From positions 1 through 64,000 of the forward strand of contig JBCAML010000008.1 of assembly GCA_038503075.1 (NCBI GenBank): DNA of 64,000 nt, written 5' to 3'. The notes under the pieces were generated by a model that saw only the letters and a program-made list of their open reading frames with translations, did not search any database and was not told where the DNA came from. Shown here piece by piece: positions 2,035-57,154 of the stretch. A program made the translations under genes and the position numbers. The first letter of the stretch is position 1, and each line of letters opens with the position of its first letter. Source of the DNA: Gyromitra esculenta. Its lineage: Eukaryota; Ascomycota; Pezizomycetes; Pezizales; Discinaceae.

Positions 2035-3462
2035 ATGACACTAAACAGTGCGGCTACGGCCAGCGGTGATCCTGGATCCTTACAACAACCCCTTAGTGAC
2101 CATGGCGATGAAGAGGAGGGCGAATACGAAGATGAAGTCGAGGACCAGGACTGGGATCAAGGTCAAAATCAGGACGAGGATGACGAGGATGTCCCTTTAC
2201 CTCTTACTAATCGAGCAACCTCGTCGGCTACTCCCTCAGCTACAATCCCCTCGAATTCCACCATCGACCTCATCGAAGCCCTCACTGCGACCTACAAGCT
2301 CCAGACCCACCGTTGGCTCCTTTCATCCGGCCGCCATGTAGAAACTGTCCTTTATGAGAACTGTCGCCTTATGGATAGCCCCGTTTTCGCTGCTTCACTA
2401 GCGCCGTCTTTTACCATCGACCTTGATGATCCTACTGTTCGTTCATGGTTTGATGATGACGAATGGAAGGAGATCAAACAGTCTGTTCCGCCACTTCCCA
2501 TAACTTCTCCTGCCATTGTTAGAATGTTTCGATCTCTTCGCCGCTTTGATGGTTGCAAGACCCCCACAGAGATACGTGCGGTATTAGCCAGTACCTCTTT
2601 CCTAAACCCAGGTGAAAATTATAGTCTAGATCGCGACTTCCTCCCCATGTGGGCTGATCTTGTCATTCGTAATTTGTATTCTATCCCTCCCCCGCATATG
2701 AGCGTGTGGTCATATTGATTGTGGATGATGGATAGAGTAACCGTCTGGGAATCTCCCGGGTATCCATTGCGTCGTAAAAACCTTGAGGATTTTTACAGCA
2801 ACCTCATTTGGGCACCAGTTCTAGACCAGTGCTTTCTTTCCCTTCCGTCTATTACTATCATCCGCAAAGAATCTGCCTGTCACTCCACTGCATCTAGAAA
2901 AAACCGTACCCGTACCCTTGAAACCCGAATGCGCCGGGGTAGGCGCCTTGACGGCGCGATCCGGAGCATTGAAGATGACTCACTGGAGTTTGGAGGTATG
3001 GAGGTAGCTCGATCTGCAGCGGGTGGAGTAACGTCGACGAAGCGGCTTGGTGATGCCAAAAAGTTATTGAGAGCGTTGAGGGATATGTTGGGAGTGATGT
3101 GTGGGCTAGTGAGGGAAGATGACGTACCGAAATTGCAGGTGGTAGGGGTGCTGTGTGCCGGCTTGAAGATGCAGGTGATTAGGATGGGCTGTTGGAACGC
3201 CGGGGGAGTAGCAGTGGTGTACAGGGAGGGGATTGTTGGTGTACCGGTAGAGGTTGAGGGGCTGACTGAGTTGAAGAAGATGTTGGTTATGGTTGCTAGT
3301 ATGAAGGGGGTGGTGGAAGAGGTGGCGAAGGCGATGAGGGAGAGACATCAAAGGCCAAGTGATGTGCCAAAGTTAGACGAAGAGCTGCTAAGGGAGATGA
3401 TGGAGGAGCCTGTAGCGGGATCGAAGCTGGCATGGGCTGCAGATACGCCGCCAGAGTCATAG
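2035..3462 (+). pseudogene. Subtelomeric gene with one in-frame stop; possible PD-(D/E)XK nuclease-like protein
   Basis: Two open stretches in the same frame are separated only by a TGA at 2716-2718. Together they would give about 475 residues. The N-terminal part starts with an acidic low-complexity run (residues about 20-60). The C-terminal part has a basic segment followed by RRLDGAIRSIEDD and LEFGGMEVARS, then an amphipathic helical region containing KRLGDAKKLLRALRDML. An Asp, then Glu, then a second Glu in that spacing resembles the core of PD-(D/E)XK nuclease-like proteins in large fungal families. This is inference from pattern memory, not a database result. No intron bridging the TGA is visible, so the copy is probably a pseudogene; a base error or readthrough remains possible. 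Its position about 2 kb from the telomere fits a multicopy subtelomeric family. Confidence 0.5.
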
Positions 3463-12632: not shown

Positions 12633-14121
12633 ATTGAAGAAGAATGATGAACGAAGTGAAAGCGAGAAGGCAGGTCTCTGAAGATAGTGGTATTGTCCAC
12701 TGAATAAAAACTGGCTGTTTCTGAAACCATTCAAGTAGGGGCGTCTCAAGGCCATGGTTATAAACACCAAGCATCCCGTAAGAATATCAAAATCGTCGAT
12801 GCCTAGAGCAGAGTTTCCCCTCCAACACGTGTGACTGAATACGAATCACCAGAATCATCTAGAAACGAATATCAACAACCGGCAATGTAGACTACACCTA
12901 ATACAGCTGTTTGAACATGATTCTAAAAGTGCATTCTACTTTGATAAGCCACGGCCGGGGAGACGGACAAGGCTCGCGGGCAATGCCCTTCCCCCTTCCG
13001 TATAAGAATCGAGAATTGAATTCAAGCTATATGCCAGGGATATCCGCGAGAAACCGAAAAGACTGTGATGGCAGCGTAAAGATTTCTCTCTACATGCGGG
13101 GCAAGGCAGATTAACGAAACTCGTAGAATCTTACAAATTGTGAGCCATTCTGCTTCCACGAGAGTCTATTACGACGAAGCGATATCTCCCAAGCCAAAGT
13201 TGACTCACTCCCTCGGAATTGATGAGGAGGAGCCAGAAGAGAGGGAGAGAATGTGGGGAAGGATGTGCAGAAAGGAGGGGAAGGGTGGATGATGTGGGGT
13301 CAGTGTTGCCTAGGGCTGAGCCTTGATCGCGATGGACGTTGGAATTGTGTTGTGCCAAGGTGTCTTGGCACTGGTTTAGCCCAGGCCGGCCCTTAGTTGA
13401 ACAGGTTGTTTTACTACACGTACCTAATCTTGTAGGCTATGCTTGAAACTTGGCTTGAAATCCTCTATGGTCGATGCCTTCCTATAGCGATCCGAGGCGC
13501 TTCCATGTAATAAAGTGGGCTGAGACGCGCCTGACAACTGATCTGACAACTTCAGAGTGTAAGATCCAGAAGAGAGGCTCCCATCCCTTTTCGAATGCCA
13601 GTACCTAAAGCTTTTCCCATCCTCAAGAGAGAAACGATATGTCGTGGCAACCAGAAACCACATCAGAAGAGGTCACCTATGCCAGTTCTGCGGGCGCAGT
13701 TCTGCAAATAATAAGAAAAGCGAAGGTTTTATTTCTCGAGCTACTGTAGATTACATATCGGAAGATACATAGTAGCTACTAATTTTCATGAAAAACGTAT
13801 TACAGTCCATTTATTAGTAATCATAGAACTGCATGTAGGTGCTGTAAGTGTGCAACCTAGGCCTCTAGTAGAATTATTGTAGAAAAACAAGGGTAAGCGA
13901 ACGCCTAAGCAGCCAATACCGCAGCCAAAATCTTTCCGATGAACCTGGAAGACCATTAAAGGCTTTAGATCCTGAGTTGCCACAATTCTACAATAATTCT
14001 ACCGGAGGCTGTAATCGATCCCAAGCTCGGGCTTAAATTCTGGTTTCCAGCTGTCTCGTGCCCAGACACAAATGCTTGGCGCCAAGGCTCGTTCCTCACA
14101 CGACGGCAATACATAATTGTA
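12633..14121. other. rvt upstream region and gene-free stretch
   Basis: The first part is the rvt promoter and 5' leader (with a possible in-frame extension to 12770). No other gene is supported. A stretch near 13130-13380 has only short open frames. Confidence 0.35.
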
Positions 14122-21724: not shown

Positions 21725-24348
21725 CTATCTTTCCTCCTTCCCTCCTCCCCTCGCGGCCCACTTCTCTACGCAATTAATTCTTTTATCACAATTCTCCAAC
21801 GCCATCTTAATGCTCGCATCGAGCAGCTCGAACTTGTTCTTGAACGTATTTATCTCTTGCTCATACTTCTCGCGAACTTCGCTATCCTTCGTATTTTTTA
21901 ACTCCTTTACTTTGGAGACATTAGAACTAGTAGTCTTCAGATCCGCAAGCATGCTTTTGTATTTCCAAACATTCCCGTGAAGTTCTACTTCCCGTAGTGC
22001 GTTAATAATTAGAATGTACGGGAGCTGCGCTTCTTTGAGAAGCTCACGATACGAGAGGATTTGACTCCTCATGCGGCCGACCCGTTTTTCGGTAAGGGAC
22101 CTCTCAAGCAAAACATGGATACTGGCGATATATGGGTGCGCCGCGGCCCAGACTTTGTCGACATATTCGCGCTCCTTGCTGAGTCCTCTCGCGATGAGTT
22201 TGTCGATCATAGCAGTCAGTCCACCGGTGCGCTCGCGTTTTCTGCTTGCCCACAAAGAGGCACTACCAAAATCTCAGAAAATCTGCTCTATCGCGAAGAA
22301 ACGGTGAAGTAATGATTATGAATCGGAGCTTGGTGACACCTACTGTTCTTTGACGATCTTCTCAAGATCACTCTCGGAAGACTCTACAACTCCGAATGCA
22401 GCTTCCCACTCCTTGAATATTTTGTCCCTCTCCCAGAATGCTTCCTCCACCATGTCATATCTCGTCTCGACCTGATTCCACAGCTCCAACCATACTTCAA
22501 GCAATTCCGTCAACTCGATGCCACCACTCACTAACCACCTATCCTCGCCTGCCAATGCCCTTGGTATTTCCCCCATGATGTCGGAATACCTATTCGAGAG
22601 AAGTTGAATGCTTTGTTGGAGCCTGTCCTCTATCTTTCGATAAACATAAATGTTGTATATTTCGCGCTCGCTGAACCCTATATTGTGTACTTGAAGTTGT
22701 TCCTGGCCAGACTGGGATGAACGAGTGCACGAAAGGTTCAGTTCTTTTCTCGTTATATTTTCTTGCTCCCATCGAGCCCACCGCCTTGCCGCCGATTCTT
22801 TATAGAGTTGGTTGACCGTTTGGCTAAAGCTGAGGTCCTGACTGACAGAATTGATGGTATATCTAATTTGTTGCAAAACCGCAGATGGCTGGGTCTTTCT
22901 GGCGTCTTGTTGATGCAATATGTTTGTGAGTAGAATTTGCTCGTAATAACCAGTAGTATCTACTACTACCGGGGGTGGCTTCGGCCACTGTAGCTCCAGA
23001 GGTGGTTGGTCAAACACCAATAGCTGCTCAAATTGCTTTTGGATCGGCGGGGACGGCATGGATACAGATACATTTCTCGCGGATGGTGGCGGTTTTATTG
23101 GGCGTAGATTTTTAGGGCACAGTTTTTTCTGAACCATTTCTCTTGATTGCGTTTGCCCGAGTGTAGGTGACGCTGCTGCTGCTATTGACCGTCTTCCCGT
23201 TCCCGTTCTTTGCGGCGGTTGAACCTGTACCTCCTCTGGATACGGCAGTGACCATGTTCTTGTCAGCGGAGCTGATGGCTGTGCCTCTGGCGCATGCAGT
23301 GTTGGATTTGCTCTTGACGACTTCAACCAGTCAACAATTTCACCTTGAGTATGAATGATTGCACCCAAAGTATCGGCCGAGGAATTCAGATCAGGGACAT
23401 TCTGGGGTACACTGTGGCTCGAAGTTTCGTACAAGTTAATACTCGGAGTCATGACCGTGATCTGGTTTGCTGGAGTATTTGTATTTCTTTCCGAATTCTT
23501 AGAGTGTCTATGCTTACGCCGAGATAGGCGTAGATCAGCCTTAGGATGGGATTCGAGAGAACTATCTTTTCTGGCAGCCCTCGGCTTTTCCGCTTCTTCC
23601 TCAAATACAGCATCTAGGCTGCTTTCGAACACTGGGGAGGATGGCCGGGAGGAAGACACAGATGAAGTGCTGGAAAGAAATCTCTGGATTCCAAAACTAG
23701 TGCTGGCTTGATATGTTGCAGCGGTGCTCTCGCCATCCCCAGAGTCCATCAGTCTATCAATGATCTCTCTCGTAGCATCCTCCAGTCTACTTTGCGAATT
23801 TTTAAACGAAGCAAAGTCTGTACTGCATAAAGTTCAACCCCCGTGCCATCATATCAGCATATTAATCCACTCTCTACCGTTGCACTAATTGGATCAAGTG
23901 ATTCTCACTAAGTTGCCAGTGCCAAAGTGATATTTAAAGTCGCTTTATGTGCTTCAAGCTGTGTCCTCAGAGCCATCAACTCCTTCTCCTGAAAAGTCCA
24001 ACGCCACCCTTTCCACTTCTTTGCCAATGCGCCATCACCGTTTTTTATCTCGTGCGCCTTCACCAACACCTGCAGCTGGATAAACTTATCCATGCAACTG
24101 TCGAGGACATTCTGAAAGTCTGCCGATAGCTCTTGATGCTGGATTGATCCCTGACTGCTGGGATTTCCGAAGGCGGTCTGAAGCTTCTTGAGGATTGAGC
24201 AGAGGTCTGTGAGTTCTTTAGCAAGGTCGTTGATCTCTCCGGGGGCTGCGCGAACGCTCTCAATGAATTGGGAGAGCTGGATGGAAGTCTTAACCCCCAC
24301 AGCAATGAGGCTAACGATAGAAGATGCCACTGAGGCCGGATCTGCCAT
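21725..24348 (-). CDS. Helo-like N-terminal domain protein with long coiled-coil C-terminus
   Basis: Three exons, 23909-24348, 22344-23822 and 21725-22262, with GT-AG introns of 86 and 81 bp (both phase 2), give 818 residues. Residues 1 to about 110 begin MADPASVASSIVSLIAVGVK and continue with a Gln-Leu-Ser-Gln-Phe helix, APGEINDLAKELTDLCSIL and a further helix. This is the pattern of the fungal Helo-like/NACHT-associated N-terminal domain related to HET-s HeLo domains. A Ser/Pro-rich low-complexity stretch follows (about 165-420), then extended helical and charged sequence to the C-terminus. There is no NACHT or NB-ARC P-loop, ankyrin or WD repeats, so it is not a complete NLR. It may be a scaffold or a NLR-associated partner; that is inference. 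The Met at 24348 was chosen over upstream in-frame Met codons because the domain starts there. No lesion is seen. Confidence 0.8.
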
Positions 24349-27300
24349 AGCTGTACCGAGGGGCGAACAAAACAGCAGATAAACCAGAAGCACCTGCCTC
24401 CCAAACTAAGCTTTTGCCCTATTCACGACAGGTATGACCAAGGGGGGGTGGCCGAGATTGGTGAGGCTGAACTACATGAACACAGAGTTTGTGCAACACT
24501 TCTCCCAAAGAAGTAATCACCAGCCTCACGGATCCCTGGTTTCGCGGGGTTGGATTGAATTATCATCAGATATCTATGAACTCCCCCCCTTGCACACAAA
24601 GCCTAGAATCAGAGCAGCAGCAACAGTATGCCTAGATCAGGGAAGACAAACCTGTTTGCCGACCTTTTAGAAAAGACGGGGAATCCTCTTAAAGTGGAAT
24701 ATCTTCAGGTGCGCTATAGGGGGGTGCTGTTCCCCTATCAGGCAAGCACGTTACTAGTTAGAGCCTAATAGAGACTCTTTTCAAGATCGCATGACGGAAG
24801 CTATCAGTTTTGGTGGGATATACCTGGAAGAAAAGAGGTTGAGAACACAATAGTCGGACTCACACCCAGCCCAATAATACCTGAGGATCCTAGAGAGAAT
24901 GCGAGATATTTTACCAACCTACAGGTTCTCATGAATCGGGCATGGGCAAGGAGTGTTCAGAATAAAAAGTATAGTGTTGGTCGGAACCGGAGGCAGCGTA
25001 AATGTACAATCCACCAACTAAGGAAAGGTAAATAAAAACTAAGGTACGGATAGGCAATAAAGGAGATTCGGATGAGCCCAGCGGTACGCGAGGCGAATCT
25101 TCTAGGCCAAAAAGGCGAAGAAAAATGGAAACAGGTACAAACCCTCCACCAGGTAATGAAGTGCCATTCAATGGACAGAAACCCTTGGAGCTACAGGAAC
25201 AAGCTATAGGACATATCTCGAAAGGTACTGCACTATGCTATCCTCCACGGTGAAAAAAAGTAATTAACGTCCCAGATAAAGAGACGCTGCCCAACAAAGA
25301 AGACAGCGTAGCGGCGAGCGAGCGGGGGGGGCATGGAGGTTCCTCGAAAGGTACAATCGGAAGCTATTTACTAAGACAAAGTACGTGGCTGAAGGCTAAC
25401 GTTTCGATCATAGCATCATCCTCCTTCAGACCATGGTGAAAATAAGCGTGAACCTGCTACGAGCTGGTGGACGAGATATATTTCTTTTCTATAATAATTA
25501 GCCCCTTCCTCTAAGGCATATATAGAGTATATGCATATGTACGGTACAAAAGAGGGAGATAAAATTGGTACAGTACTAGCCAACCAGCATGGTATTCCGA
25601 ACGCTGGACCAACACGAGCCCTAGTATTTTATGTAGCTCGATTCTTCAGGAGATATAGTTTTATTCACGTATTTTTAGTAATGTGGTAGCAACCCTACCC
25701 CGTATTTTGTTCGTACTAATGAATTCGTATCTCCTAGTCAGTTCCGTTTTTCGCACTTCTAGTGAGGTTACTAACAGCAGAAACTAGCCAGAGGGGGTGT
25801 CGCGACGACCTTTTCTCTGAGAATTCTGCCAATAGAACAGTTGTCACAGCGTGGTCCCACCCTTTCGCCACTCTTCTAGGAATAGCTCCTGTGCCTGAGA
25901 ACGAACGAAGGGATCGTGAGCCTCCGACTGGGCTGTGTTGCTACCAACCTGTTACATACGCCACGAGACAGGGTAACCGCCCACACATACGTGTAGCCAA
26001 GACTTCTGCCATGCAGCGTTAACACAGGTCTATGTATTACAAATGTTACCTCCTGCACGGCACTGTGAAATACCAACCTTTACAATTAAATTAGCACAAG
26101 ACCAACAAACATCCTCCCCATTCCCAAACAACAGCCAGAACAGGAGTCGAAAAGCCACTCCTAAATATTAACGTTCCATTAATACTAGTAGTATGCTTCG
26201 CGAGCTCCAACTAAACCGCCAGAACCCTGTAACCGACCCCTAACCCCTGCAGGCTACCAGATAAATTACAATCACAATATATCACTCGCAGATGAAGTGC
26301 CACCATATGTTGAAACTATTAGCATTGCGCCCTAACAGTACTCAGGGCTCCGCCCCCTGTAGATCTTTGATAACTACATGTAGACAGGGTTTGGAAGACC
26401 CCCGGATTCCGGGAGCTCTCTATTGGTCAATCTCCTGTATACATGTGTGTACTGCCTGCTTTGTTTGTACAGTATCTCGTTCGGCATCCTAGGCTTGAGC
26501 TAAAATAATACTCGATCGTGGTCCTAAACTCCAACACCATATACCTCATCTACAAAACAATTGCCGCTAGCAAAAAACACACACTACCCCAAGAACATCA
26601 TTTCCACTAAAAGGCAAATGGTCTACCTTTCCTTACGAAAGCAACAAGAAATATTCTTTACCGGGCTTATTAATGCCAATGATCGATAACCCATATTCCA
26701 GCGTCTGATCGGTAACCACTTTGAACGATAGTCCCCCTTGTCCTGCCATCGATACCGTATTGTGCTCTACCGTTCTCATTCAAATATGGTACAATACAGT
26801 ACGGCACAGTACGGTAATCCTACCAAACCCATCCCTAAAAGCAACAAATCAGAAGTAAACCAATAAAACACCCTACAACCACACACAGTATGTACGAACA
26901 GAAAAAAGCTACATACATGTATCCACGCCGAGGCTTGAACCTACCAAACACAGCCCGAAGAGAAACACAGTAGGTATGTACAGTACTGATGTCGCCACCT
27001 CGTCCTAACAAAAAAATTTGATCCATAGTCTGGGGTTAGGGCACACTGCCGCGAACCGGGGCGCACCTTCAGTTTTTTTTCCTTTCTTACCACCTCTTGT
27101 GCTTTAGCATAAGTGGAATTTTCGTGTCGTTTAGTTTCACGGTCGGGCGCCTAGGCTAGCTAATCACACGTGATGAGTGAACTAGGCATACGGTCCACCA
27201 AAAATACTCGTGTCGTCAGATTTATAGTGCTGAGTGACTAAATTTTGATTAAGGTCGGAACTATCATGAGATACGGGAAAAAGTAGCATTCTGAGAGTGA

Positions 27301-33505: not shown

Positions 33506-33941
33506 CTAACATTCCACCAAGAATATTTTAACAGACGTAAGTTTAAGAACTCCTTCCCAATGCATCTGATTAATCTTACACAAGTCAGTTGAAAAAGCCC
33601 GAGTGACTGTAGCCCCACCAAAAATGTGAGCTATCACTGCATTTAGTTTCTACAGAACCTTGTCAGAAAGCGCATAAAATAATAACATCGACCAATTCCA
33701 GGAAATTACACGAAAACTACCAACCTCCCAGGTCTGGATCGAATCAACTGGACACAATATCGGGTAGCTTTTGCCAAACCTCGCCTTGCCGACTATAATC
33801 AATTTGGCGAGGCCAGGCCCCGGAGGGCTGAATTGGTCACCGAAAGGCTCACCCTGTGATGCGTTGAATGACCTTAGTTCAACATGATGGTCCTTGATGA
33901 AATGATTGTTTAATAGGACTCAAACTTACAGCAATTCGCAT
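33506..33941 (-). CDS. Small tandem-array gene, copy 1
   Basis: Exon 3 (33506-33649) and exon 2 (33725-33853) are open, joined by a phase-0 intron, and match the other copies in layout. Exon 2 carries GPGLAKLI, then ILCPVDSIQTWE at the donor. Exon 3 starts KLNAVIAHIF and ends VKIFLVEC. The first exon is uncertain: the only ATG in the right frame before a good GTAAGT donor (33930-33941) gives just four codons. A longer ATG frame nearby is out of phase by one base, so the copy may be damaged at its 5' end. Function is unknown. See copies 3-5, which have complete reading frames. Confidence 0.45.
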
Positions 33942-34652
33942 CCCCGAAAAGATGCCTAGATGTGTGATATTAGACATGCGCCGAGCCTGAGGTTATCGCT
34001 GTTGTTGAGGAGAGGATTATCGTAGTTTTTTTTCCCAGCAGATTCTTCTCTCTAGGTCTTGTAGAGCGCGGGTGTCTAAGTACTCAAAGGCGAGTTGATT
34101 CACGGATTGTGTTAGGCAACCACTCATGCACCCCGCTCAATGTGAAGCCACGTCGCACAGACTTCAGAGCTTATGGTATGCAAAACCGAGGTTTATAAAG
34201 AAGCAGAAAAATCCGCTTCGAGGGGCAAGGAATCGATCATTGAAATAGCAATGTTTAGATGGATCGCGATTCTTGTTGGAGTCCTTATACCCAGTACCTG
34301 GTGATTGGCACCAGTATTAGCTACAGGGCACCCAGGACTGCTTTTCGGGAAAGAAGAAGCAGTACCAAAGATGGGAAGCTTCTAATTTTCTAAAGAGAGA
34401 AACAGAGCTTATTTTCGTGTCATGGTTGGTATAAGTGATTGAGAGGTTGGTTGGTACAGGACAGAAAGCGGCCTCATCCTGTACTTTGCTACCATGCTCT
34501 CTAAGAGCCATTAAGAGCCATTCAAGCCCTTACACAATCTAACTACACGTATTCTATCCCTAGGTAGAGCATTCGAAGTCTTAAGGCGTCCTTCGAGCGA
34601 TGCTAAATTTACTGAATATTCATACTTGGATGTATACAGATTCCAAACCATC

Positions 34653-35020
34653 TTAGCACCTCAAAAAGAATATCTTAACATCTGTAGCTGCAAGAACCTC
34701 AGCCCAATGTTCTCCGTGGATTTCACACATTTCAGATGAAAACATTGTGAAAATTTTCCCCGCATCCTGGAAAGAATACGCCCATTGTGTGTTTAAGTTT
34801 CTATTGTTCTAGGTTAGTTGGTTTGTATGGGGTACCAGGCCAGTTTAAGATTTAGAGGGGACCTCAGCCAGAAGTCGACGGGACTCCACTTACGGCCCAG
34901 GTATCGATACTGGTAATAGGCAATATCCTCGGGCTGTGCCAGTCAAATCTAGTTTCCCTTCTACACAACTTAACTAAGCCTGGGCCTGGTGCATTGAACC
35001 AATCCCTAACAGGAGATATC
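34653..35020 (-). pseudogene. Small tandem-array gene, copy 2 (broken)
   Basis: Exon 2 (from 34894 upward) carries NAPGPGLVKLCRRE and ILPITSIDTWA, followed by a GTAAGT donor. Exon 3 (34653-34800) starts KLKHTMGVFFPGC but is 148 bp long instead of a multiple of three. Its second half, which encodes EMCEIHGEHWAEVL, lies in a different frame, so a frameshift splits it. No open first exon was found. I read it as a pseudogene. Confidence 0.5.
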
Positions 35021-35787
35021 TATTTGGAACTGCAAATCAGTGTAAAAGGAACCCACGCGGGACGATGGTAGTGGATAGAAGGCAAGTGTGTCTACTGACC
35101 GAATCCAAGACCGTAGGAACTTGAGCACCTATTGATTGGGGAGACATATATGCTTGATATTGCTGGATAGAGAGTATCTGTAGCTCTTATCCGATCCTTG
35201 GTGTTGCGTTGATGGGGACGCTGATTCCCCGCCTGGCAGTCAAACCGCACATAAGATTCGTCAAGGTTCATCCAATTTTAAATCTAAACGTAGGATGTAA
35301 AATTAAGCCGGTAACAGAGGAACAAGACAATTACTACTATTACATGTAGCTAATTTTCTCAAATAGCCCCCCCAATCTCGGGCGAAATTATTTTAAAGAA
35401 ACCTGGCTGACCGCGATATCACGTGATGCTTTGCCCTTACAATCACTTAGCACTAATACTTTTCCTCTCCGCTCCAGCAGCTTAGAGTCACTTTTTGGTG
35501 TTCTATGTGGACTTGTTGCACTATATCACTCCTTACCTTTCAAACGGCTAGGTATATCTATGTGCCAATTTTTGACCCGCGTAGACAAAGAAGACGGGCC
35601 CTAGGGCTGCGAAAATTATAAGCTACGTGTACTACAGCTAGTACATATATCCTCTCATCTTTTGATGCGGCGATGTTTTTATAGGCAATATATAGGCACT
35701 TTATTAGCTGAAAACTCAGCGCCTGTATATATTTAGATACACTAATTACGCCCATTTTTACGCCCACCGCAGCCACGAATGTCCAGT

Positions 35788-36230
35788 TCAGCATTCCACG
35801 TGAAATATCTTGAGAGTCGTAGCCGCAAGCACCTGCTGCCAATGCGTCGGGCTTATCACACACATATCGGGCGAGAAAACCCGGATAGTTTGTCTGCAAT
35901 CTGGAAAGAGATAGCGGACCGTTGCATCAAGTTTCTATTATTTTTGTTAGCCAGGGAATCCAAATAACGGGGAGACGGGTTGACTGACCTCCCACGAATC
36001 AATGCTTTCAATGGGGCATACCCTTGGATGGAATGTTAGATTCCCGACCTTGGCTCTGAGCAGCTTGGCTAGGCCTGGCTCAGGAACACCTAGGGAAGTC
36101 TCTGAGCTGGCGATCTATAGAGCCACTTTGAGTTAGCATGAATTATAGACTTATAGTAATTCGATAGCGATGGGTGGAGCGGAGCAACCGAGAATCGACC
36201 AACCGAGTAAGGGACCAGAGAAGCGCCCAT
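35788..36230 (-). CDS. Small tandem-array gene, copy 3 (99 residues)
   Basis: Exons 36204-36230, 35989-36114 and 35788-35934 are separated by phase-0 GT-AG introns of 89 and 54 bp and give 99 residues. Exon 1 encodes MGASLVPYS. Exon 2 encodes EPGLAKLLRAKV...RVCPIESIDSWE. Exon 3 encodes KLDATVRYLF...SPDMCVIS...HWQQVLAAT and ends HVEC. The intron before exon 2 has a good branch site (GCTAAC). There is no signal peptide or membrane segment, so the product would be a small cytosolic or nuclear protein. The fold and function are not recognised. All three exons are open and in phase, so this copy could be expressed. The gene model rests only on comparison between copies. Confidence 0.5.
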
Positions 36231-37005
36231 GGTTCTAAGGGATCGATATCAAGCCTAGATGGGAAACTTTGACTGAAGATGGTATTTCGTGACCGAGGTT
36301 AATGGAAGAGCCCTCTATTTTAGTGCGAAGTGGAAGCTCGGGTAGAGAATCCAGACCTCAGGCAACCACGCAAGACATGTACATCACCTGATGCAGTGCT
36401 GCTTATACGCGCGTGTAGTGTTGCGCAGGGCATGTATGTATTTACTAAACTCCACCAACCCCGGCATATATGCGTACAACATAAACAGCTATTCAATAGC
36501 TATATTCTTATGTAGGATAAATGACCATTATTAACGAAGGGGCGCTATGGCATATATAGCACATTACCAAGCACCTAATCCACTCCTTCTCAGCGATCAT
36601 TGGATACACACATCATAAAATTTTGCAAGGGGCGAAAATCAATCTTATTACTTCATTACATACAGTGCCATATGGTAGAGCTCAGGATCTCTGTGGAAGC
36701 TTTGGGATAACCTATTATAGGATAGGTATTGCGCGGTAAGGAGATTTTATTGAAGGATGGTAGGAGTACAGCTGTTATACAGATGACACTGATAAACTAT
36801 TTCCGCAGACTGGGCAGGCTATGAGGGCTATGGCCCGTGGATATTCAAAGAGTTCCTAGCCATACATGCATCTTCCTTCTACTAGTTTTGCTTTAGCTCC
36901 GGTACCCCATAACCACAGAATCTTGCCCCCAAATGACCTACCCCCGGCATCCATTATAGTTAATTAGGAGAGGTTTTCATATAAATAAAACCCAACTACC
37001 TTTCA

Positions 37006-37515
37006 TCAACCCCAGATCACATAGAATATTCTAATAACTGACGCATCAAGCACGTCCTCCCAGAAGACGCTGCGAATCACGCATTTGTCAAATGACCACA
37101 GCACAGGTTCCCCGTACTGTTTCTTTAAACTATCCTTGTCCGGAAACCTACGATCGTAAAGAGTGTTCAAAGTGAATTCAAGTTTCTACAATCTTTGGTT
37201 AGTAAAAGTCCCTGTAAAAATTACGCTCAGGACTACAAGATCTATGGAAGTTTACGTACCTCCCAGGTATTAACCTCACCTAACGGGCACAGCCATACCC
37301 TCGGATCCGTCCCGTACTCCCAGCCAGCGGGTTTTACAGAACCGTCCCCGTAAACAGAACGGATGAATTTCACAAGGCCAACTGGTGGAGCAATACTAAA
37401 AGGATTCAAAGCCGATTCCTGTAAAATTTATCAGTTACATGCAGTATCGGCGTTTTTAGTTGTGGACTGGAGGGCGCACGACTGCTTTATTGCTGCTTTC
37501 TGCTAAAGTGCTCAT
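37006..37515 (-). CDS. Small tandem-array gene, copy 4 (124 residues)
   Basis: Exons 37480-37515, 37260-37418 and 37006-37185, with phase-0 introns of 61 and 74 bp, give 124 residues. An in-frame ATG at 37536 would add seven. Exon 1 encodes MSTLAESSNKAV. Exon 2 encodes PPVGLVKFIR...RVWLCPLGEVNTWE. Exon 3 encodes KLEFTLNTLYDRRF, then WSFDKCVIRSVFWEDVLDAS. The first intron contains the branch-like AACTGAT before TTTTACAG. This is the longest copy, with insertions in exons 2 and 3 relative to copy 3. No signal peptide or known domain is seen. Confidence 0.55.
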
Positions 37516-38167
37516 CGTTTGAGAGGCTGCGGCCATGAAGCCAAGATGTACTCCAGTAAATGTTTGTGGTTTTTGTTTGCTACGAGGATAGCAATTAAGA
37601 TAAGTAAGGCCGCCTACAGGACTTACCCCACTCCAACCCCAATGTAAAGCGCTTAATGTCACACAGCGCCGCACACGCGCATGGATCATCATTAATCCAA
37701 CATACCTACGTCGAATCTCGTATCCATGGAATATTGTTATCCCCAGGGTTTCCCGGTCAGGGAGGTGGGGGTTATGGTAGCCTTTGTCTAAGGGGTTTGG
37801 ATGGAAAAAGAATGTTATTAAACGCGAGTGATTCGTGGTGACGTCACAATAAGAGCATCGAGGAAATTCACGGGTTTCCCACAGTTCTTGGGAAGTTTCA
37901 GATTTCAGTACTAGTATTTGTTTGACCGTTTCATTAATAGTGATATGAGGTTATCAAGGCTTGAATCGAGCAGGGGCCGCGCTAAATTTTATCACTAAAC
38001 TTTATGCCAGATCAAGACCTTGGCCTATAGAGTGCCAGATCCAGTTTTCCAGATATATCTACCAAGCTCAATTGTAGGGTACTGGTTAAACTATTCTAAA
38101 CTCGAGGTTAAATCCGCTTATAAAACAACACTTCTTGGCATACAATCAACAAGCCAACTTCCTTTCT

Positions 38168-38609
38168 CTACACCCATTTTACTGTGAATTCTTTCACGGC
38201 TATTATAGCAAATACTTTCTCCCAGAACATCTGTGGGATAATACATCCATCAGATGAGGTGACTTCAGGCTCAGAGGAATAATTTTTCTTCGGGTCGAGA
38301 TTGTAGAGGATACATAGAGTTTGCCTGAGTTTCTATATATATTGTATGCAGTTAACAAAAAAAACCCCCTAGAAATTATCAGTTCAACACATAAGACTTC
38401 AGAATCACATACAGCCCAAGTATCGATCTCATCTGCAGGGCACAGCCATACGACTTTAACTTTAGTATGGCCGCCAACTGGCCGGCAAATTCTCACCAGT
38501 TGATCACTACCGGATGACCGCTGTGGAAAAGATTCTATTCAGCTTCGTCTGATGCGATGGGGTAGATGCTAATACTCACTACGTAGGCAACCTTCGAGGA
38601 CATTGACAT
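38168..38609 (-). CDS. Small tandem-array gene, copy 5 (100 residues)
   Basis: Exons 38580-38609, 38413-38520 and 38168-38332, with phase-0 introns of 59 and 80 bp (donors GTGAGT and GTATGT), give 100 residues. Exon 1 encodes MSMSSKVAYV. Exon 2 encodes GSDQLVRICRPVGG...VVWLCPADEIDTWA. Exon 3 encodes KLRQTLCILYNL, then DGCIIPQMFWEKVFAI. The splice site falls after the conserved Trp-Glu/Ala and before Lys-Leu, as in the other copies. Sequence divergence from copies 3 and 4 is large while the exon layout and key residues are kept, which suggests old duplications under some constraint. Confidence 0.55.
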
Positions 38610-38850
38610 TTAGCAGAATTTAGCTAGTTGGTGATTCCGAGACAGCAGATATTGGGACAGGTGTTGATTGCGGTGCGGGTTGCGTAAATTCAGTTTATTA
38701 TCTCTCACACACGTATATATATAGTACGAAAGAGAAAAGCGGGCCATCCGGTTATCACTAGTGAGTTTTATAGCGATTCATGCCAAGCCTCTTTACTTTT
38801 CAAGGCAGCAGCACTACATTACGCATATATTCTGACTGGTTTTCCATTAC

Positions 38851-39364
38851 GGCCGGTTTACAAACCGGTCGGCCTATTTACAAATGGGACCACTTCGAAC
38901 ACCGGTTGGCCCATCTACAAAGTGAAGTTAAGAGATGATCACGACTGATATTCAAAGTTTCCTCCAAGGCAAAAATTCTCTTCTCCCCCAACAACCACCT
39001 CCTAAGCCTCTCACAGTTTATATAGTCGCCCTTAATGCTATACTACTAGTACCGAACTTGCACAATCTACCGAAATTTGCTCAATATAGAAAATTCAGTA
39101 CTATGGGGTAGCATTGTGAAAGGAAGAAAAAAAGGATTCAGTATGCCAGTGTTAAGTTTCGGTATAGCAAGGCACAACTATATCTATGATGTTGAGGGTA
39201 GGCTGATACTTGGCTGATATTTGTTTTGAAAGAGCTCCCAAGCTCGCTCACTGATAGCGTATTCTTTGAATATCGGCCATCTCTTAACTTCACTTTGTAG
39301 ATGGGCCAACCGGTGTTCGAAGTGGTCCCATTTGTAAATAGGCCGACCGGCTTGTAAACCGGCC
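38851..39364. repeat. Fold-back element with arms of about 105 bp
   Basis: Bases 38851-38957 are nearly identical to the reverse complement of 39264-39364 (GGCCGGTTTACAA..CCGG at the outer end, GATATTCAAAG at the inner end). About 306 bp lie between the arms. The arms contain internal short palindromes such as CCGGTTTACAAACCGG. No coding sequence is seen. It sits inside the small-gene array, upstream of copy 5. Confidence 0.8.
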
Positions 39365-39772
39365 TGGCCACTTTGTAAACAGACATTCTTGGAATATTGG
39401 TCACAACACATATGAGCACGTCCCTGTCCATCGCCCATGGCCAATGGGGTACGGTGAATCGTTCGCGTACGCGTACATACGCGTACGACGGGAGTCAGGT
39501 AAAATAAATACCGCAGTATTTCGTGGTCAGGCCTTGAGGTCTAATGTGAAGTAGAGAGGTAGAAGTCTGCATGAAAAGTCTTAGATTCTTGCTGTTTAGG
39601 CAATAGTAAGAACCAATGTCCACTAGTCCAAGGGTTACGCCTGGGTTGGGTCAGCTATGCCAATCCAAAGCTCAGGGAAGCCATCCGAAACATCCTTAAG
39701 CTTTATGCGGACTTTTGTCCCTCCGCTCTACATTAGGCCTTGAGGTCTAATCACGAAACACCTGATACCATA

Positions 39773-39922
39773 GAGCGGTGGAGGGGTCAGCGAGGCAGAG
39801 GGTATAACGAGGCTTGAGTAGAGTAGCAAATGGAATATTTCGCCACAAAATGTACATCAGTTTGTTAGCCAAGACCGCCAAGCCTCGTTATACCCTCTGC
39901 CTCGCTGACCCCTCCAGTGCTC
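39773..39922. mobile_element. MITE, 150 bp, TA target duplication
   Basis: Terminal inverted repeats of about 43 bp start GAGCGGTGGAGGGGTCAGCG at the left and, read inverted, GAGCACTGGAGGGGTCAGCG at the right. The flanks are TA on both sides. A second, more diverged copy lies at 51104-51231. Confidence 0.8.
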
Positions 39923-40078
39923 TAATCTAAATATTATTTTTACACTTGCAGAGATCAACAAAGGCGTATACAAAACCGAGGGAAACATCCAGAATAGAAA
40001 AGGCCACATCAAGTGAGGTTTAATATTTTACGTTATCAGTGCTTCTCCTTAATTCCTTACCAGGACGTACTTCAACAT

Positions 40079-40330
40079 TCAAACACAGTTTCGATACCGA
40101 CATTGAGACTGGATATCGCGGTTGTAGAGAATGAATATGGCGTTCTCAAGCTCCTCTTGCATTGAGTTAGCAAAGGTATCTAGAAGCCCAAGCAAGTAAG
40201 CGGTAAGAATCTCAAGCACAGCCCACGTATCTGCTTCATCGGTAAGGCACAGCCATGGAGTGCCACTGCAAATCAATTTCATTAGACCTGGCGATGAGTC
40301 GCATGTGAAAAGGGCATCAGTTCCTCTGAA
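40079..40330 (-). pseudogene. Small tandem-array gene, copy 6 (degenerate)
   Basis: The exon 2-like part encodes SSPGLMKLICSG...PWLCLTDEADTWA before a weak GTGCTT donor. The exon 3-like part starts ELENAIFILYNRD and stops early at 40079-40081, lacking the Cys-Ile...Trp-Glu region. The exon 2 acceptor is out of phase with the array consensus. I regard it as a truncated relic that marks the edge of the array. Confidence 0.45.
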
Positions 40331-40340
40331 ACAAGCTCAA

Positions 40341-40695
40341 TGCCCTGAACGAAGTGCTCTGAACGAAGTGAAGGGTTATGGAGTAAGGAAAGAATTAATC
40401 TCGATGCTGATTGGTCAGTCGATCTGACCAGTAAATCCTGATTGCCCCCCTCCAAAAATAAGGATGAGAGAACCCTAACCCAGTGTCAGGACTCCAGAAG
40501 CATTGTGTAGGGCGCCACCACAAAGCGGTGTTATAGGAGCAAGCTTTTCACAGGTTTATTAAAGCTCGAGGCCCCCAGTGTTCTAAGTACATTGGATATG
40601 GTTCTTCGTTCAGGGCATACGACCCCCTACAGGGCGACGGGGCTAGATCCAGTGAGGCATATCACTAGATAATGGATTGCTGGGGGGGTCGTCTC
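40341..40695 (-). repeat. Dispersed repeat, copy A (inverted relative to copy B)
   Basis: About 355 bp match the reverse complement of 49831-50195 over nearly the whole length with substitutions and one larger indel. The shared landmarks include GAGACGACCCCCCCA at one end and CTTCGTTCAGGGCA at the other. GCCCTGAACGAAG recurs internally as an inverted copy of that end, suggesting a nested inverted-repeat element. No coding sequence is seen. Confidence 0.8.
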
Positions 40696-41476
40696 TAGTT
40701 TAGATTAGTTCCATGAGGCAACAGGTATCCGTAGTGATTAGATTAAACCGCTGTGCTTTCTTCGACCTTAACTAGAACTCCATATTTGTTTTAGACATCC
40801 TAGAATACAGATGGATAGCAGCCTAAGGTAAGGTTTTTGTCGATTTAAGCCGTGTGGTAGCTAATGCTCGTATCTAATTTGTCGGTACAGCGATCAAGAT
40901 ACCCAGTATTGACTATAACTATGAAAGAATTCAAGGTTTATATATCAAAAAGAGTACCCCGCAGCACAGTGTAAGAAAGAAGCAAGCATCAAAACAGCAG
41001 CTCATGCATGTAGGTCGCACCTCGCAAGATAGCAACGTAGCACAAGGCCACGCCACTCAGACGCCCTACTCTACAGATAGAGTGGGTACCTGATATTCTG
41101 AGATGGAGCAGTCAGGTACCGACAATGGACTCCTCGGAGAGCTTCCCCTCGATGCAGTGGGTAGGATGTATCCCCAGTGAGCGATGACTTGTAATTATCT
41201 AGACAAAATCTCGACAGCCACTCTGCAGCACCCGGTGATCGTGAATAACGGTTTGATTCTCAGGCCCATACCAGCAGGCACACAGGCTGGGGCTCTCTGC
41301 TACAGTAGTCCGTCGCATTTGCCATACCAGGCCGACCAAAACAGGTTAGCGCGATCACGCCCAGCCGAGGCTCCTTCTGTAGTTGACGACGGTGTCCACA
41401 ACCAAACCTCCAACCCAAAACATCGCCTTCCCCATGCCTCGATAGTCTTCGCTCCTAGCAAAGTCACCGAAACAAA
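40696..41476. other. Gene-free stretch; SPC3 upstream region
   Basis: No supported gene. The last 200-300 bases are the likely promoter and leader of SPC3. Confidence 0.35.
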
Positions 41477-48952: not shown

Positions 48953-49830
48953 GGCGAATGTGGCGCTGGATGTGGTGTTGGGCGATGGTTTCTTGAAGGG
49001 CAATTGTTTGGTGGTGTTTGGTGGTGTTGAAGCTTTTCGGAGCTCTCTATCGTGGCAGTTCGTGGGAGAACTGTGCTGTGCGCCAAGCCTTTTTCTTGGC
49101 GCATCCATGCTGGCCCAATCGGGAGTAACTCCCCTTTCAGGCCAGGCGATAGAGACCAAGCATGCATGCAGTTATGCATATATTCGTTCTATGGCTATGG
49201 ATATTTTGTGCCGTATCAGTGCTCTAGAGTTACTAGCCCAACCTGCATAAGCACCCAGTATACTCTATACTACTACTGCAGTTTCACACACAAGTAGTCT
49301 CCTTAGCAGCTTGTGGATTGCAGCCTCGACCTCGAAGTCTTATAGCGCAAAATCTGGTGTCTCGCAGAGATGAGGGAAGGGTTAAGAGTACCTATTGTCT
49401 AGCTTAGGTACTTGCGTTAGGGAGTATCCGATGCAGTAAATGCGTGATACCCACAGTGTGTACACGTAATTGCCTACGACAACGTGGTTATCATTATTAA
49501 TTGTTTATGATTCAATTCGGCACATACAGCCCTTAGGTTAATGTTATACCATGCCAACGTGGTAGAGTGTTTATATGCATCCATATCGCATAGCCCAGCC
49601 GCAAGCATTTATCAATGGTTCCACGGAACACGTGACTGGGTGGGTATATATCTTGCAAGCCTATCTATTAGAGGATCACGAACCAACTCTCGGAAAATAC
49701 CAAAACCCTCTCCAGCAGTGGTGTTACCGTCGTATCACATATACGTGATAATCAACGATTCCCAACGGGCGGGGCCAATCACGCTCCGTCAGCCACCACG
49801 ATGTGCCTATTTGGAGGTATGTATTTACTG
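48953..49830. other. Gene-free stretch upstream of EMC6
   Basis: EMC6 promoter followed by DNA without a supported gene. Confidence 0.35.
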
Positions 49831-50195
49831 GAGACGACCCCCCCAACAATCTATTATCTAGGGATATGCCTCAGTAGACCTAGCCCCGTTGCCCTGTAGG
49901 GGGTCGTATGCCCTGAACGAAGAACCATATCCTATGTACCCAGAGCACTGGGGGCCTTGAACTTTAATAAATAAGCCTGTGAAAAGCTCGCAGTCGGGAC
50001 CTCACAGCGTTCGATCCCGCTACCACTTCACGGTGGCGCCCTACACAATGCTTTGAAGCCCTGATATTGGGTTAGGGTTCTCTCATCCTTGTTCTTGGAG
50101 GGGGGCAGTCAAGATTTACTGGTCAGATCGACTGACCAATCAGCATCGAGACTAATTATTTCCTTGCTCCATAACCCTTCACTTCGTTCAGGGCA
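49831..50195 (+). repeat. Dispersed repeat, copy B
   Basis: Inverted partner of 40341-40695 (see there). Copy B carries an extra segment near 49995-50030 with TTCGATCCCGCTACCA, which is absent from copy A. The copies bracket SPC3, PRP18, GCS1, SAP18 and EMC6. Confidence 0.8.
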
Positions 50196-53252: not shown

Positions 53253-56200
53253 TTGACAGACTGTAAGGTATGGGAGGTCATCACTGGACCCGATGCGCCT
53301 AAAAGTAATCCATCTGAGGGTAACGGGGCCCACACATCGCCTACGGAAGGCGCTCCTAATCCAAAAACTGAGGCCATACCACAGGTACATAATCCAGTTA
53401 TGAGCAATGCATCCCCAGGCATCACAAACCAGACGGCACTAGCATTGGTGAAGGCTCGCACTCGCCTAAGCGTGCTGTCAAGTGACTGGAATCTAGATTC
53501 TAGAAAAAAGGTCGTAGTTTTGCAGAATACTATCGAGATGTCAATGAACGAGGTTTTTGCCAACATTATCCTAAATGACGATTTCGGGGATATCGAAAAG
53601 TTTGAATGGACAATACCAGTGAAAGCCAAATTCAACGACAATCCGTCTGCATACGAGCCTACGGAGCCCTTGGAGATCACGCTTACTCTTAGGAGAGGAA
53701 AGGACGAAAATTCTGGCTGGAAAATAGATCTGAATGAATTAGAAGCTATTTTATGTCTCTGGATCTCCTCCCTTGTAAGGGTCAATAGGATACGGGCAAA
53801 GGAAAGCAAACCTCGATTAAAGAATATTCGATTATTAGGACTAGCTACCCAGAAGACAAAGGTGAACTATAGACTATGGATATAACGCGGGACAACACCA
53901 TACGTACCACTTCCGGAGAACGAAAAGGCTAGGTATTTTGGATGGGTTTCTAACAAAGTTAGCGGTGGTGGTAGTTCGGAAGCTATGCCGCCCGACTTTC
54001 TCTGCATCGATTCGAATACAGAGATAGAGTTATTGTGCGCCCAGGAGCTGTATGTTTTATTTCTGTCAAAGTTAGTGGCTGGGATAAAGGAGGTTGGGGG
54101 GTGTACGGCGCGGCGTACCGCCAATTCAAGTGCAGAAATTCCGGTAATGAACAGCAATCTCAACGACGACCATTGGGGAGAATTCCGTCTCAACAATACC
54201 AACTTGGCGTCGCTTGCAAGAATCTATCATGAATGTGGCCTTGGGAGTCTTGAAGAGGCATATTCCTGTATTATTCCAGCATTCAGTGTCGTGGATAAGC
54301 TCGTATATCCACACCAGGCGTACATCGAAGCTCGTAAAGCCTCGAAAAGACTAGAAATGGGAAAATCATGGGAGAAAACCACTGAGATCGATTCCTGGTT
54401 ATATGACGACTCCAAAAAGATGAAGGCTGGCTCGTACGAGGCCACAGCCATCACTGCCGAGATCGGAAAACGCCTCCTAGAGCTGACCCGAATGCTTGTC
54501 GCACGCGAAAAGGACCGTAAAACGGACGAAACCTTCTGGAAGATGTGGGATACAGCGTACTCGCGTTGCAAAGTGTTTGAAGTAACCTCAGAAGACCGCG
54601 CAGCCAGTGCAGTGAATTTGTACAGTACCTATAAAGCGGCGAGGACTTACAAAAAGGACCTTCGTATCTCGGATCTATTCAAGTTTACGTTTAGCACTAT
54701 AAAGGATTTAGACCCCACTAAGTACCGGACGGCGGTGATTGTCGCAGATCTTGTCCGCGCAAGAAGAGATCATTTCCTGCATAACAATGAACTGGAGGAA
54801 TATTTTTCAAACCCAACATATGTAACACGAATGTGTGTACCCAGGGCAGGCGGTATTGAAGATCCTCAGCTCCCGATGGATCTTCAATTGATTAGAGGGC
54901 ATCGAACGCCGCTACAGTTCGCAGCAGAGAGTAGTAAAAAGGAGCTAGTGAAAAAGCTGTTAGGTGTTAGGCCTGACACAGTTAATTCCGAGCCAGCTGA
55001 ATATCTTGGGCGAACACCATTGCAGGCTGCATCGGGGGCTGGCCATATAGGAATTGTTGAGGTGTTGATCGGAGCTGGAGCTAAAGCAAATGCTGCACCA
55101 GCACGTCATTCAGGGCGGACAGCTTTGCAGGCGGCGGCAGAGACAGGTCATCGAGAAATTGTCGAGTTACTCCTAAGGGAAGGCGCCAATATCAATGCCG
55201 AACCAGCATTCTATTCCGGGTTGACAGCGTTACAGGCAGCGGCAGCGGCGGGTTATAAAGAAGTCGCAGAGCTTCTTTTGAAGGCCAATGCCGCTGTTAA
55301 TACACCGCCAGCACCCCATTCTGGACGAACGGCATCGCAGGCTGCGGCGGAGGCAGGCCATCAAGAAATCGTGAAGCTACTCTTAGAAAAAGGTGCCGAT
55401 ATCAATGCGGAACCAGCCTTCTATTGCGGAAGAACAGCCCTTCAGGCGGCGGCAGCGGCAGGTCATCAGGAGATCGTCGAGTTACTCCTAAGGAAAGACG
55501 CCGATATAAATGCTGAACCAGCATTCTATTCCGGGCTGACGGCGTTACAGGCAGCGGCAGCGGCAGGTTACAAAGAAGTCGTGGAGTTTCTTTTGAAGGC
55601 CAATGCTGCTGTGAGTGCACCGCCAACACCTCATTCTGGACGAACGGCATTGCAGGCTGCGGTAGTGGGTAACCATAAAGCTATAGTGACGCTGCTTCTC
55701 GGGGCCAATGCTGATGTGAATGAGGAGCCAGCAAAAGAATTTGGAAAAACGGCGCTGCAAACCGCCGTCGAGAACGATTATGCAGGGATGGTTGTGTTGC
55801 TACTTGCGTCAGAGTTCAATACTGGGGTTGCTCTAGTTACCGCGTCGATGCGGGGACAAAAATTAGTAGTAGAGGCGCTTCTCCGGAATGGTGCAAATCT
55901 GAAGACAAGGGATACAAAAGGAAACACGGCACTTCATCTCGCAGCTGGGCACGGGCATAGGGAGTAGTGGAAGTGCTTGCGAAGAACGGGGCAAATGTCG
56001 AAGCGATGAATTACCGTGGTGACTTAGCACTGAGTCTTGCGGCTAAGCAGGGGCATGAGAAAGCTGTGGGTATTCTCTTGAAGAATGGAGCAGACATCGC
56101 GGCGATGGGCAGCAATAGGTACCCGACGTTGCACTATGCGGTTGAGTCTGGGAATGAGAAAGTGGTGGATCTTCTCTTGGAGAATGGGGCGAATATTGAG

Positions 56201-57154
56201 GCAAAGGATGAGGCCGGAAACACGGCATTACATCTTGCAGCTTTTAAGGGATATGAGAAGATGATAGGGGTGCTTCTAGGCAAAGTGGACATCGAGATGG
56301 TGGGGACGGTAAAAAAGGGTATACAGAGCACGGCACTACATATTGCAGCTTTCGATGGACATGAGAAGGTAGTAGAGATGCTCGTGAAAGGCGGAGCAGA
56401 TATCACGTCGACGGATAGCTTCGGATACACTGTAATACGCGTCGCAGTCACTTATGGGCAAGAGGAGGTGGTAGAGATGCTTTTAGACAAAGTGGACATC
56501 GAAGCGGTGGGGCCGGTATCCCGCGATATACAGGGCACGGTGCTGAATATGGCAGCTTTTGAAGGGTATGAGAAGGTGGTGGAGGTGCTCATCAAAGGCG
56601 GTGCGGATACCACATCGAAGGATAGTAATGGATACACTGCGCTTCACCGCGCGGCATCAAAAGGGCATGAAAAAGTAGTAGAGTTGCTTCTGGGCAAAGT
56701 GGACATCGAGTCGGTGGTAACGGAGACATGGGAAAAAGAACTGCAGGTCACGGCACTACATCTTGCAGCTTTCCATGGACATAGAAATGTAGTGGAGGTG
56801 CTTTTGAGAGGTGGTGCGGACGTTAAATCGAAGAATAGTGATGGATATACTGCGCTGCACATTGCCGCTCAGTCTGGACATAGCAAGGTCTTAGGGGCGC
56901 TTTTAGGCAGTATCGGCGTTGAAGAGAGGAGTGGCGATGGATATACAGCACTGCACTTAGCAGCCCGGTATGGGAAAGACGAGGCCGCGAGGAGGCTTTT
57001 GGGTGGCGGTGCGGACGTTAAAGCGAAGGATAAAGATGGTCTCACCGCGACGCAAATTGCAGCGAAATTTAGACGCCCAGGACTTGCAGAATTTCTTTTG
57101 AAGGTGCCAGAAACAATGGTGGAAGGTGAAGCGGACATTCAAATCGAGGGTTGA
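53253..57154 (+). pseudogene. Large ankyrin-repeat gene with a stop codon and a frameshift
   Basis: One coding sequence of about 1,300 codons is broken twice. The first break is a TAA at 53883-53885, in the same frame on both sides. The second is a one-base loss near 55963-55967, after GHRE and before the continuing ankyrin consensus. The first 210 residues and the next 270 or so form a non-repeat N-terminal region (LNELEAILCLWISS, RYFGWVS, IPAFSVVDKLVYPHQAYIEA). From about 54880 on there are roughly 20 ankyrin repeats. Repeats between 55080 and 55740 are 35 residues long instead of 33, with insertions such as AEPAFYSG. Repeats after 55967 alternate canonical units with longer ones (KVDIE..G). 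Ankyrin arrays bind protein partners; in fungi many such proteins belong to STAND-like recognition families, but no NACHT is visible here. The start at 53253 is tentative. Both lesions could be assembly errors; otherwise it is a young pseudogene. Confidence 0.75.

What the first reader, a model, noticed from the sequence alone, without database searches (positions are those of the whole stretch)
33506..40330. Tandem array of about six copies of an unrecognised three-exon small gene
On the minus strand, copies near 33.6, 34.8, 36.0, 37.3, 38.4 and 40.2 kb share one layout: a tiny first exon (9-12 codons), a second exon ending in [L/V]CP-x-x-[E/S]-[I/V]-x-[T/S]-W-[E/A] exactly at the splice donor, and a third exon beginning K-L and containing a Cys-Ile and a Trp-Glu/Gln pair. 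Both introns are phase 0 where complete. Copies 3, 4 and 5 have full open frames of 99, 124 and 100 residues; copy 1 is open in exons 2-3; copies 2 and 6 are broken. The spacing is about 1.1-1.3 kb, stretched between copies 5 and 6 by inserted elements. Protein divergence is high although splice junctions and motif residues are kept, which suggests long-standing duplication with diversification, as in recognition or effector-type families. I recognise no known domain; the proteins lack signal peptides.
Basis: partly seen in the sequence, partly recalled or inferred. Interest (0 to 1): 0.85.

Follow-up and report, generated by a model that had tools for sequence, protein, structure and literature searches.

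The report
Morel tandem array of ubiquitin-like genes
A row of six old, much-diverged copies of a tiny split gene near a chromosome end of a probable morel fungus likely encodes free-standing ubiquitin-fold proteins, distant relatives of a known fungal domain, which is a modest but real addition to that kind.

Summary
Six tandem copies of a small split gene lie on the minus strand at 33.5-40.3 kb: four with open frames, two broken, the sixth a weak remnant. Exon 3 profiles from copies 1 and 3 plus an outside homologue detect copies 2, 4 and 5, and the reverse. Silent sites are saturated in 15 of 25 exon pairs and spacers share nothing detectable, so the duplication is old. One homologue was found elsewhere (P0001, metagenomic) and no other locus in the 47 Mb genome. 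Pfam finds nothing, but the copies look like distant relatives of the fungal ubiquitin-like domain ULD_2 (PF22893). Their phase-0 intron after Trp-x falls where ULD_2 genes have theirs, followed by exactly ten residues to F/Y. Profile similarity is weak but above most shuffles. A low-confidence model made without ULD_2 rows has a matching core order, and its structural matches are mostly ubiquitin- or PB1-like. Most likely these are non-conjugated ubiquitin-fold binding proteins; function is inferred and transcription untested.

The parts
33930..33977 (-). copy 1, putative exon 1 (16 codons, GTAAGT donor)
   Evidence: phase-0 ATG frame ending at GTAAGT; not conserved in sequence, inferred
33725..33853 (-). 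copy 1, exon 2
   Evidence: frame and flanking splice sites; matches copies 2 and 3
33506..33649 (-). copy 1, exon 3 with stop
34894..35004 (-). copy 2, exon 2 (degraded copy)
   Evidence: no acceptor in register
34653..34800 (-). copy 2, exon 3, broken by a frameshift
36204..36230 (-). copy 3, putative exon 1 (9 codons, GTTGGT donor)
   Evidence: inferred
35989..36114 (-). copy 3, exon 2
   Evidence: homologous to P0001
35788..35934 (-). copy 3, exon 3 with stop
   Evidence: exon 2 to exon 3 read through the intron matches P0001 at 61 percent
37483..37515 (-). copy 4, putative exon 1 (11 codons; exact start and donor uncertain)
   Evidence: weak donors GTCGTG or GTGCGC
37260..37418 (-). copy 4, exon 2
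37006..37185 (-). copy 4, exon 3 with stop
38580..38609 (-). copy 5, putative exon 1 (10 codons, GTGAGT donor)
   Evidence: inferred
38413..38520 (-). copy 5, exon 2
38168..38332 (-). copy 5, exon 3 with stop
40220..40294 (-). copy 6, exon 2 remnant (weak)
   Evidence: E 0.01 with the copy 4/5 profile, 0.38 with the five-copy profile
40079..40156 (-). copy 6, exon 3 remnant, early stop (chance-level profile score)

Best explanation
The array is an anciently duplicated family, found at one locus in this genome, of small (about 100-124 residues) free-standing ubiquitin-fold (beta-grasp) proteins, distantly related to the fungal ULD_2 domain that elsewhere in this genome sits in larger proteins. 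Each is made by splicing short exons; the last intron lies between codons at the start of the main helix, as in ULD_2 genes. No copy ends in Gly-Gly, so they are probably not conjugated like ubiquitin. They most likely act as non-covalent binding modules (adaptors or decoys). Shown: the copies, homology among copies 1-5, old divergence, one outside homologue, the shared intron position. Supported but not shown: ULD_2 ancestry and fold. Inferred: the binding-module function.
For: Homology among copies and coding status. Age: spacers show no similarity by sensitive BLASTN; in 25 exon pairs pS is 0.52-0.89 and saturated (no finite distance) in 15. Outside homologue P0001: 66 percent identical to copy 3 once its presumed intron is left out. 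ULD_2 link: (i) the two ULD_2 genes of this genome that I could read have a phase-0 intron after Trp-x (CKKWS|GMEELIKQAF at C12, CSRWQ|NFQDALEISF at C21), as have copies 1-5 (TWE, SWE or TWA|KL...), with ten residues from intron to F/Y in all seven. (ii) Of 120 listed ULD_2 homologues (184 found), 90 start exactly at the Met after this point, 19 are contiguous across it, 10 run into unrelated residues there, and 1 lacks my motif; in 9 of the 10 the residue before the Gly is Gln, as a CAG acceptor gives. (iii) hhalign sets Trp-x and the helix in register without being given introns, E 0.0039 and 0.0034; 2 of 400 column shuffles reach the latter score. (iv) With the ULD_2 HMM, 0, 1, 20, 27 and 48 of 4000 shuffles of copies 3, 1, 5, 4 and P0001 reach the true score. 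(v) The copy 3 model (pLDDT 55.9, no ULD_2 rows) and a ULD_2 model (pLDDT 81.7) share the core order strand, strand, helix, strand, short strand, helix, strand, and the top structural matches of the first are mostly PB1, UBL and SUMO-like domains.
Confidence: 0.68

Rival explanations
1. A real, constrained small-gene family whose resemblance to ULD_2 is accidental or convergent: an orphan fold, or another beta-grasp group such as PB1.
For: No curated family hit; weak profile score; PB1 domains lead the structural lists.
Against: The intron coincides with the ULD_2 intron in position and phase, with the same ten-residue spacing to F/Y, and that intron is seen across fungal ULD_2 genes.
Confidence: 0.22
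2. A decaying relic: once-functional tandem genes now drifting, with open frames kept by chance in short exons.
For: Copies 2 and 6 are broken; repeats lie between copies 5 and 6 and upstream of copy 6; 12 of 16 exon pairs overlap the codon-shuffled control for pN; no expression data.
Against: Four copies keep frames, splice sites and motif residues although silent sites are mostly saturated. pN of copies 1 and 3 (0.35 and 0.34) is below the lowest of 100 codon-shuffled controls (0.42 and 0.44) in both exons. P0001 keeps the motifs.
Confidence: 0.08
3. Non-coding satellite-like duplication with chance reading frames.
For: Steps of 1.1-1.2 kb between copies 1 to 5.
Against: Similarity lies in the protein frame of the exons and spacers are unrelated.
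Confidence: 0.02

Closest known systems
ULD_2 fungal ubiquitin-like domain (Pfam PF22893)
   Same: Position and phase of the intron, Pro-x6-Trp-x before it and ten residues to an aromatic residue after it; D-x-x-x-I then Trp in the second half; core order of predicted secondary structure.
   Different: Array proteins are short and free-standing, give no Pfam match, and carry a Cys-x-Ile; ULD_2 in this genome lies in larger proteins (410 residues at C21; an open frame of 808 residues holds the part before the intron at C12).
PB1 domains (p62, aPKC, NBR1)
   Same: Beta-grasp fold; lead the structure lists for the copy 3 model.
   Different: No sequence match found; PB1 charge motifs were not examined.
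Ubiquitin, SUMO, ISG15
   Different: No C-terminal Gly-Gly in copies 1-5.

Membership tests
ULD_2 (PF22893) | Match above the curated Pfam score | tested here: not met
   no ULD_2 row up to E 10 for copies 1-5 and P0001; the C21 protein as control scores 70.1 bits
ULD_2 (PF22893) | Profile similarity above chance | tested here: inconclusive
   hhalign E 0.0034, reached by 2 of 400 column shuffles, but probability 9.5 percent; single-sequence shuffles
ULD_2 (PF22893) | Phase-0 intron after Trp-x at the start of helix 1 (a feature seen here, not a published definition) | tested here: met
ULD_2 (PF22893) | Beta-grasp order of secondary structure | tested here: inconclusive
   same core order in both models, but copy 3 pLDDT is 55.9
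Conjugated ubiquitin-like modifier | C-terminal Gly-Gly | tested here: not met
   copies 1-5 end in VEC, LRC, VEC, VIWG, VKWV
PB1 | Acidic OPCA motif or basic lysine cluster (recalled) | not tested
   fold matches only
Secreted effector | N-terminal signal peptide | not tested
   no predictor run; exon 1 uncertain

The most novel reading that the evidence does not exclude
A lineage-specific array of free-standing ubiquitin-fold decoys in morels that diversified to bind or block larger ULD_2-bearing proteins, for example in self/non-self or stress signalling, with a family-specific Cys chemistry (Cys-x-Ile plus a terminal Cys in copies 1-3).
Probability: 0.12. Interest if true: 0.6.

Novelty: new variant of a known kind. 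Interest (0 to 1): 0.36.

Why it matters
It would extend a little-studied fungal ubiquitin-like domain to short free-standing tandem genes that its curated model does not detect, and it shows one way to find such genes: a conserved intron position inside the domain. If it holds, catalogues of morel genes may lack other short split genes of this kind (inference).

Tried and rejected
Pfam scans of spliced copies and read-through forms gave nothing for ULD_2; one row for copy 1 (PAF-AH_p_II, E 0.062, under its cut-off, partly over intron residues) was rejected. A PDB sequence search with copy 5 gave one row at E 1. Genome rows outside the array at C10 (E 1.86) and C3 (E 0.28) were taken as chance; the C10 stretch was read, the C3 one was not. 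These searches are not sensitive: queries from copies 1, 3 and P0001 did not reach copies 4 and 5, so diverged copies elsewhere may be missed. A third ULD_2 place at C5 carries stops and was only described. A search for relatives of the C21 ULD_2 region found nothing at E <= 0.001 among 17 candidates, so the ULD_2 profile rests almost wholly on C12-type relatives. dN/dS proper could not be estimated: codon-shuffled exons aligned the same way also give pN below pS, so pN below pS alone is not used; 12 of 16 pairs overlap that control. RIP indices were not distinctive by eye. The repeat upstream of copy 6 resembles sequence upstream of the C21 ULD_2 gene (by eye), but it is a dispersed repeat with 52 listed matches, among which that C21 place is not; I give it no weight. 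An alignment with exon fragments (A6) put exons 2 and 3 on top of each other and was dropped. Paper searches: PF22893 gave 0 papers; ULD_2 gave 10, 8 listed, none of those on the domain; the rows listed for searches show nothing on this family (listings and starts of abstracts only). In PMC7014384 I saw passages on telomeres only. On those searches I found no paper on these genes; subscription journals are mostly outside the library.
Full report
What is there. The window is the first 64 kb of contig C8 (2.04 Mb) of a 47.1 Mb genome in 23 contigs, starting with telomere-like CCTAAAC repeats at 3-52. A ULD_2 domain of this genome is 100 percent identical, over the 81 percent of the query covered, to a protein of Morchella conica, so the organism is probably a morel; this rests on one conserved domain. 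On the minus strand, six copies of a small gene lie at 33.5-40.3 kb. Their exon 3 ends lie at 33506, 34653, 35788, 37006, 38168 and 40079, so the steps are 1.1-1.2 kb except the last (1.9 kb), where a foldback element of 514 bp and a second inverted repeat sit.

Is it real. Exons 2 and 3 are open in copies 1, 3, 4 and 5, with phase-0 junctions; copy 2 has a frameshift in exon 3 and copy 6 an early stop. The copies fall into two groups, {1, 2, 3} with the outside protein P0001, and {4, 5, perhaps 6}. An exon 3 profile from copies 1, 3 and P0001 detects copies 2, 5 and 4 at E 8e-13, 8e-7 and 6e-6, and the profile of copies 4 and 5 detects copies 1, 3 and 2 at 6e-7, 2e-6 and 1e-3, in 2611 six-frame segments of the window. 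Exon 2 crosses the groups only weakly (E 0.008 to 0.16; chance rows at 0.055 and 0.17). Copy 6 is supported by a 45-base repeat and by E 0.01 for exon 2 with the copy 4/5 profile, but scores at chance with the five-copy profiles (E 0.38 and 19). Sensitive BLASTN among the spacers finds no similarity. Intron 2 has a CTRAY motif at -16 or -17 in 4 of 5 copies. Exon 1 is plausible but not conserved; copies 1 and 5 have good donors, copy 4 poor ones.

How old and how constrained. In 25 exon pairs pS is 0.52-0.89, giving no finite distance in 15 and dS 0.88-2.15 in 10; pN is 0.31-0.54. Because protein-guided alignment itself lowers pN, I compared 16 pairs with codon-shuffled exons (100 each). Four of the 16 lie below every control: copies 1-3 in both exons, and exon 3 of copies 3-4 and 4-5. 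The other 12 overlap the controls. So constraint is clear for the closer pairs, and dN/dS proper cannot be given.

Distribution. Whole-genome searches with exon 3 of copies 3, 5 and 4, with P0001, and with exons 2-3 of copy 1 find only this array apart from chance-level rows (the first at E <= 0.001, the others at E <= 10). They are not very sensitive: the copy 1, copy 3 and P0001 queries did not reach copies 4 and 5. In a protein database of 5.77 billion sequences the array profile found 1 protein among 262 candidates, P0001 (104 residues, contig of 3036 bases, E 7.8e-22).

What it resembles. The likeness to the fungal ubiquitin-like domain came from memory and was then tested. The genome has ULD_2 matches at three places. 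At C12 the domain reads ...FPFELCKKWS|GMEELIKQAF..., at C21 ...IPLFLCSRWQ|NFQDALEISF..., both with a phase-0 intron at the bar; array copies read ...CPIESIDSWE|KLDATVRYLF... and similar. Pro-x6-Trp-x before the intron and ten residues to an aromatic after it agree in copies 1-5, C12 and C21. Of 120 ULD_2 homologues listed (184 found), 90 begin at the Met just after this point, 19 are contiguous across it, 10 continue into unrelated residues, and 1 lacks my search motif; in 9 of those 10 the residue before the Gly is Gln, as a CAG acceptor gives. The intron therefore seems to be widespread in fungal ULD_2 genes, though starts at a Met may partly be the gene-caller's choice. Sequence scores alone are weak: hhalign E 0.0039 and 0.0034, probability 8.5 and 9.5 percent; 2 of 400 column shuffles reach the second score. 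With the ULD_2 HMM, 0, 1, 20, 27 and 48 of 4000 shuffles of copies 3, 1, 5, 4 and P0001 reach the true score; copy 2 was not included (HMMER listed 2769-3357 of each 4000, and I take the unlisted ones as lower). With the array HMM, 59 and 105 of 4000 shuffles of C12 and C21 reach theirs. No copy matches ULD_2 in Pfam.

How it probably works. A free-standing ubiquitin-fold protein without Gly-Gly, so not conjugated; most likely a non-covalent binding module. The partners are unknown; larger ULD_2 proteins are one possibility, untested. Membership in ULD_2 as Pfam defines it is not met; I call it a probable distant relative.

Verdict. An old tandem family, ordinary in kind but matched by no Pfam model, with a likely ubiquitin-like fold. 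Interest is moderate.

Noticed in passing
38851-39364: Foldback element with 87 bp arms (99 percent complementary); four near full-length relatives on C9, C14, C10 and C20 and many arm fragments.
   Followed up: partly
40440-40720: Dispersed repeat, 52 listed matches in the genome, one more at 49827-50110 of the window; a similar stretch lies upstream of the C21 ULD_2 gene (by eye).
   Followed up: partly
39771-39924: Inverted repeat with 46 bp arms and 62 bp between them.
   Followed up: no
23908-24393: Minus-strand frame with a PigL_N domain (E 2.4e-14) and a weak SesA match under its cut-off; such domains are known from N-termini of fungal NLR-like proteins (recalled).
   Followed up: no
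53985-57154: Two ankyrin-repeat frames with internal tandem repeats of 105 and 207 bp.
   Followed up: no
9969-12770: 933-residue minus-strand frame with a weak reverse transcriptase match under its cut-off (RVT_1, E 0.005).
   Followed up: no
33506, 34653, 35788 (ends of copies 1-3): The last residue is Cys in copies 1-3 and P0001, and the Cys of D/E-x-Cys-x-Ile is kept in copies 1-5 and P0001; the 20 ULD_2 rows have no Cys at the latter place.
   Followed up: no
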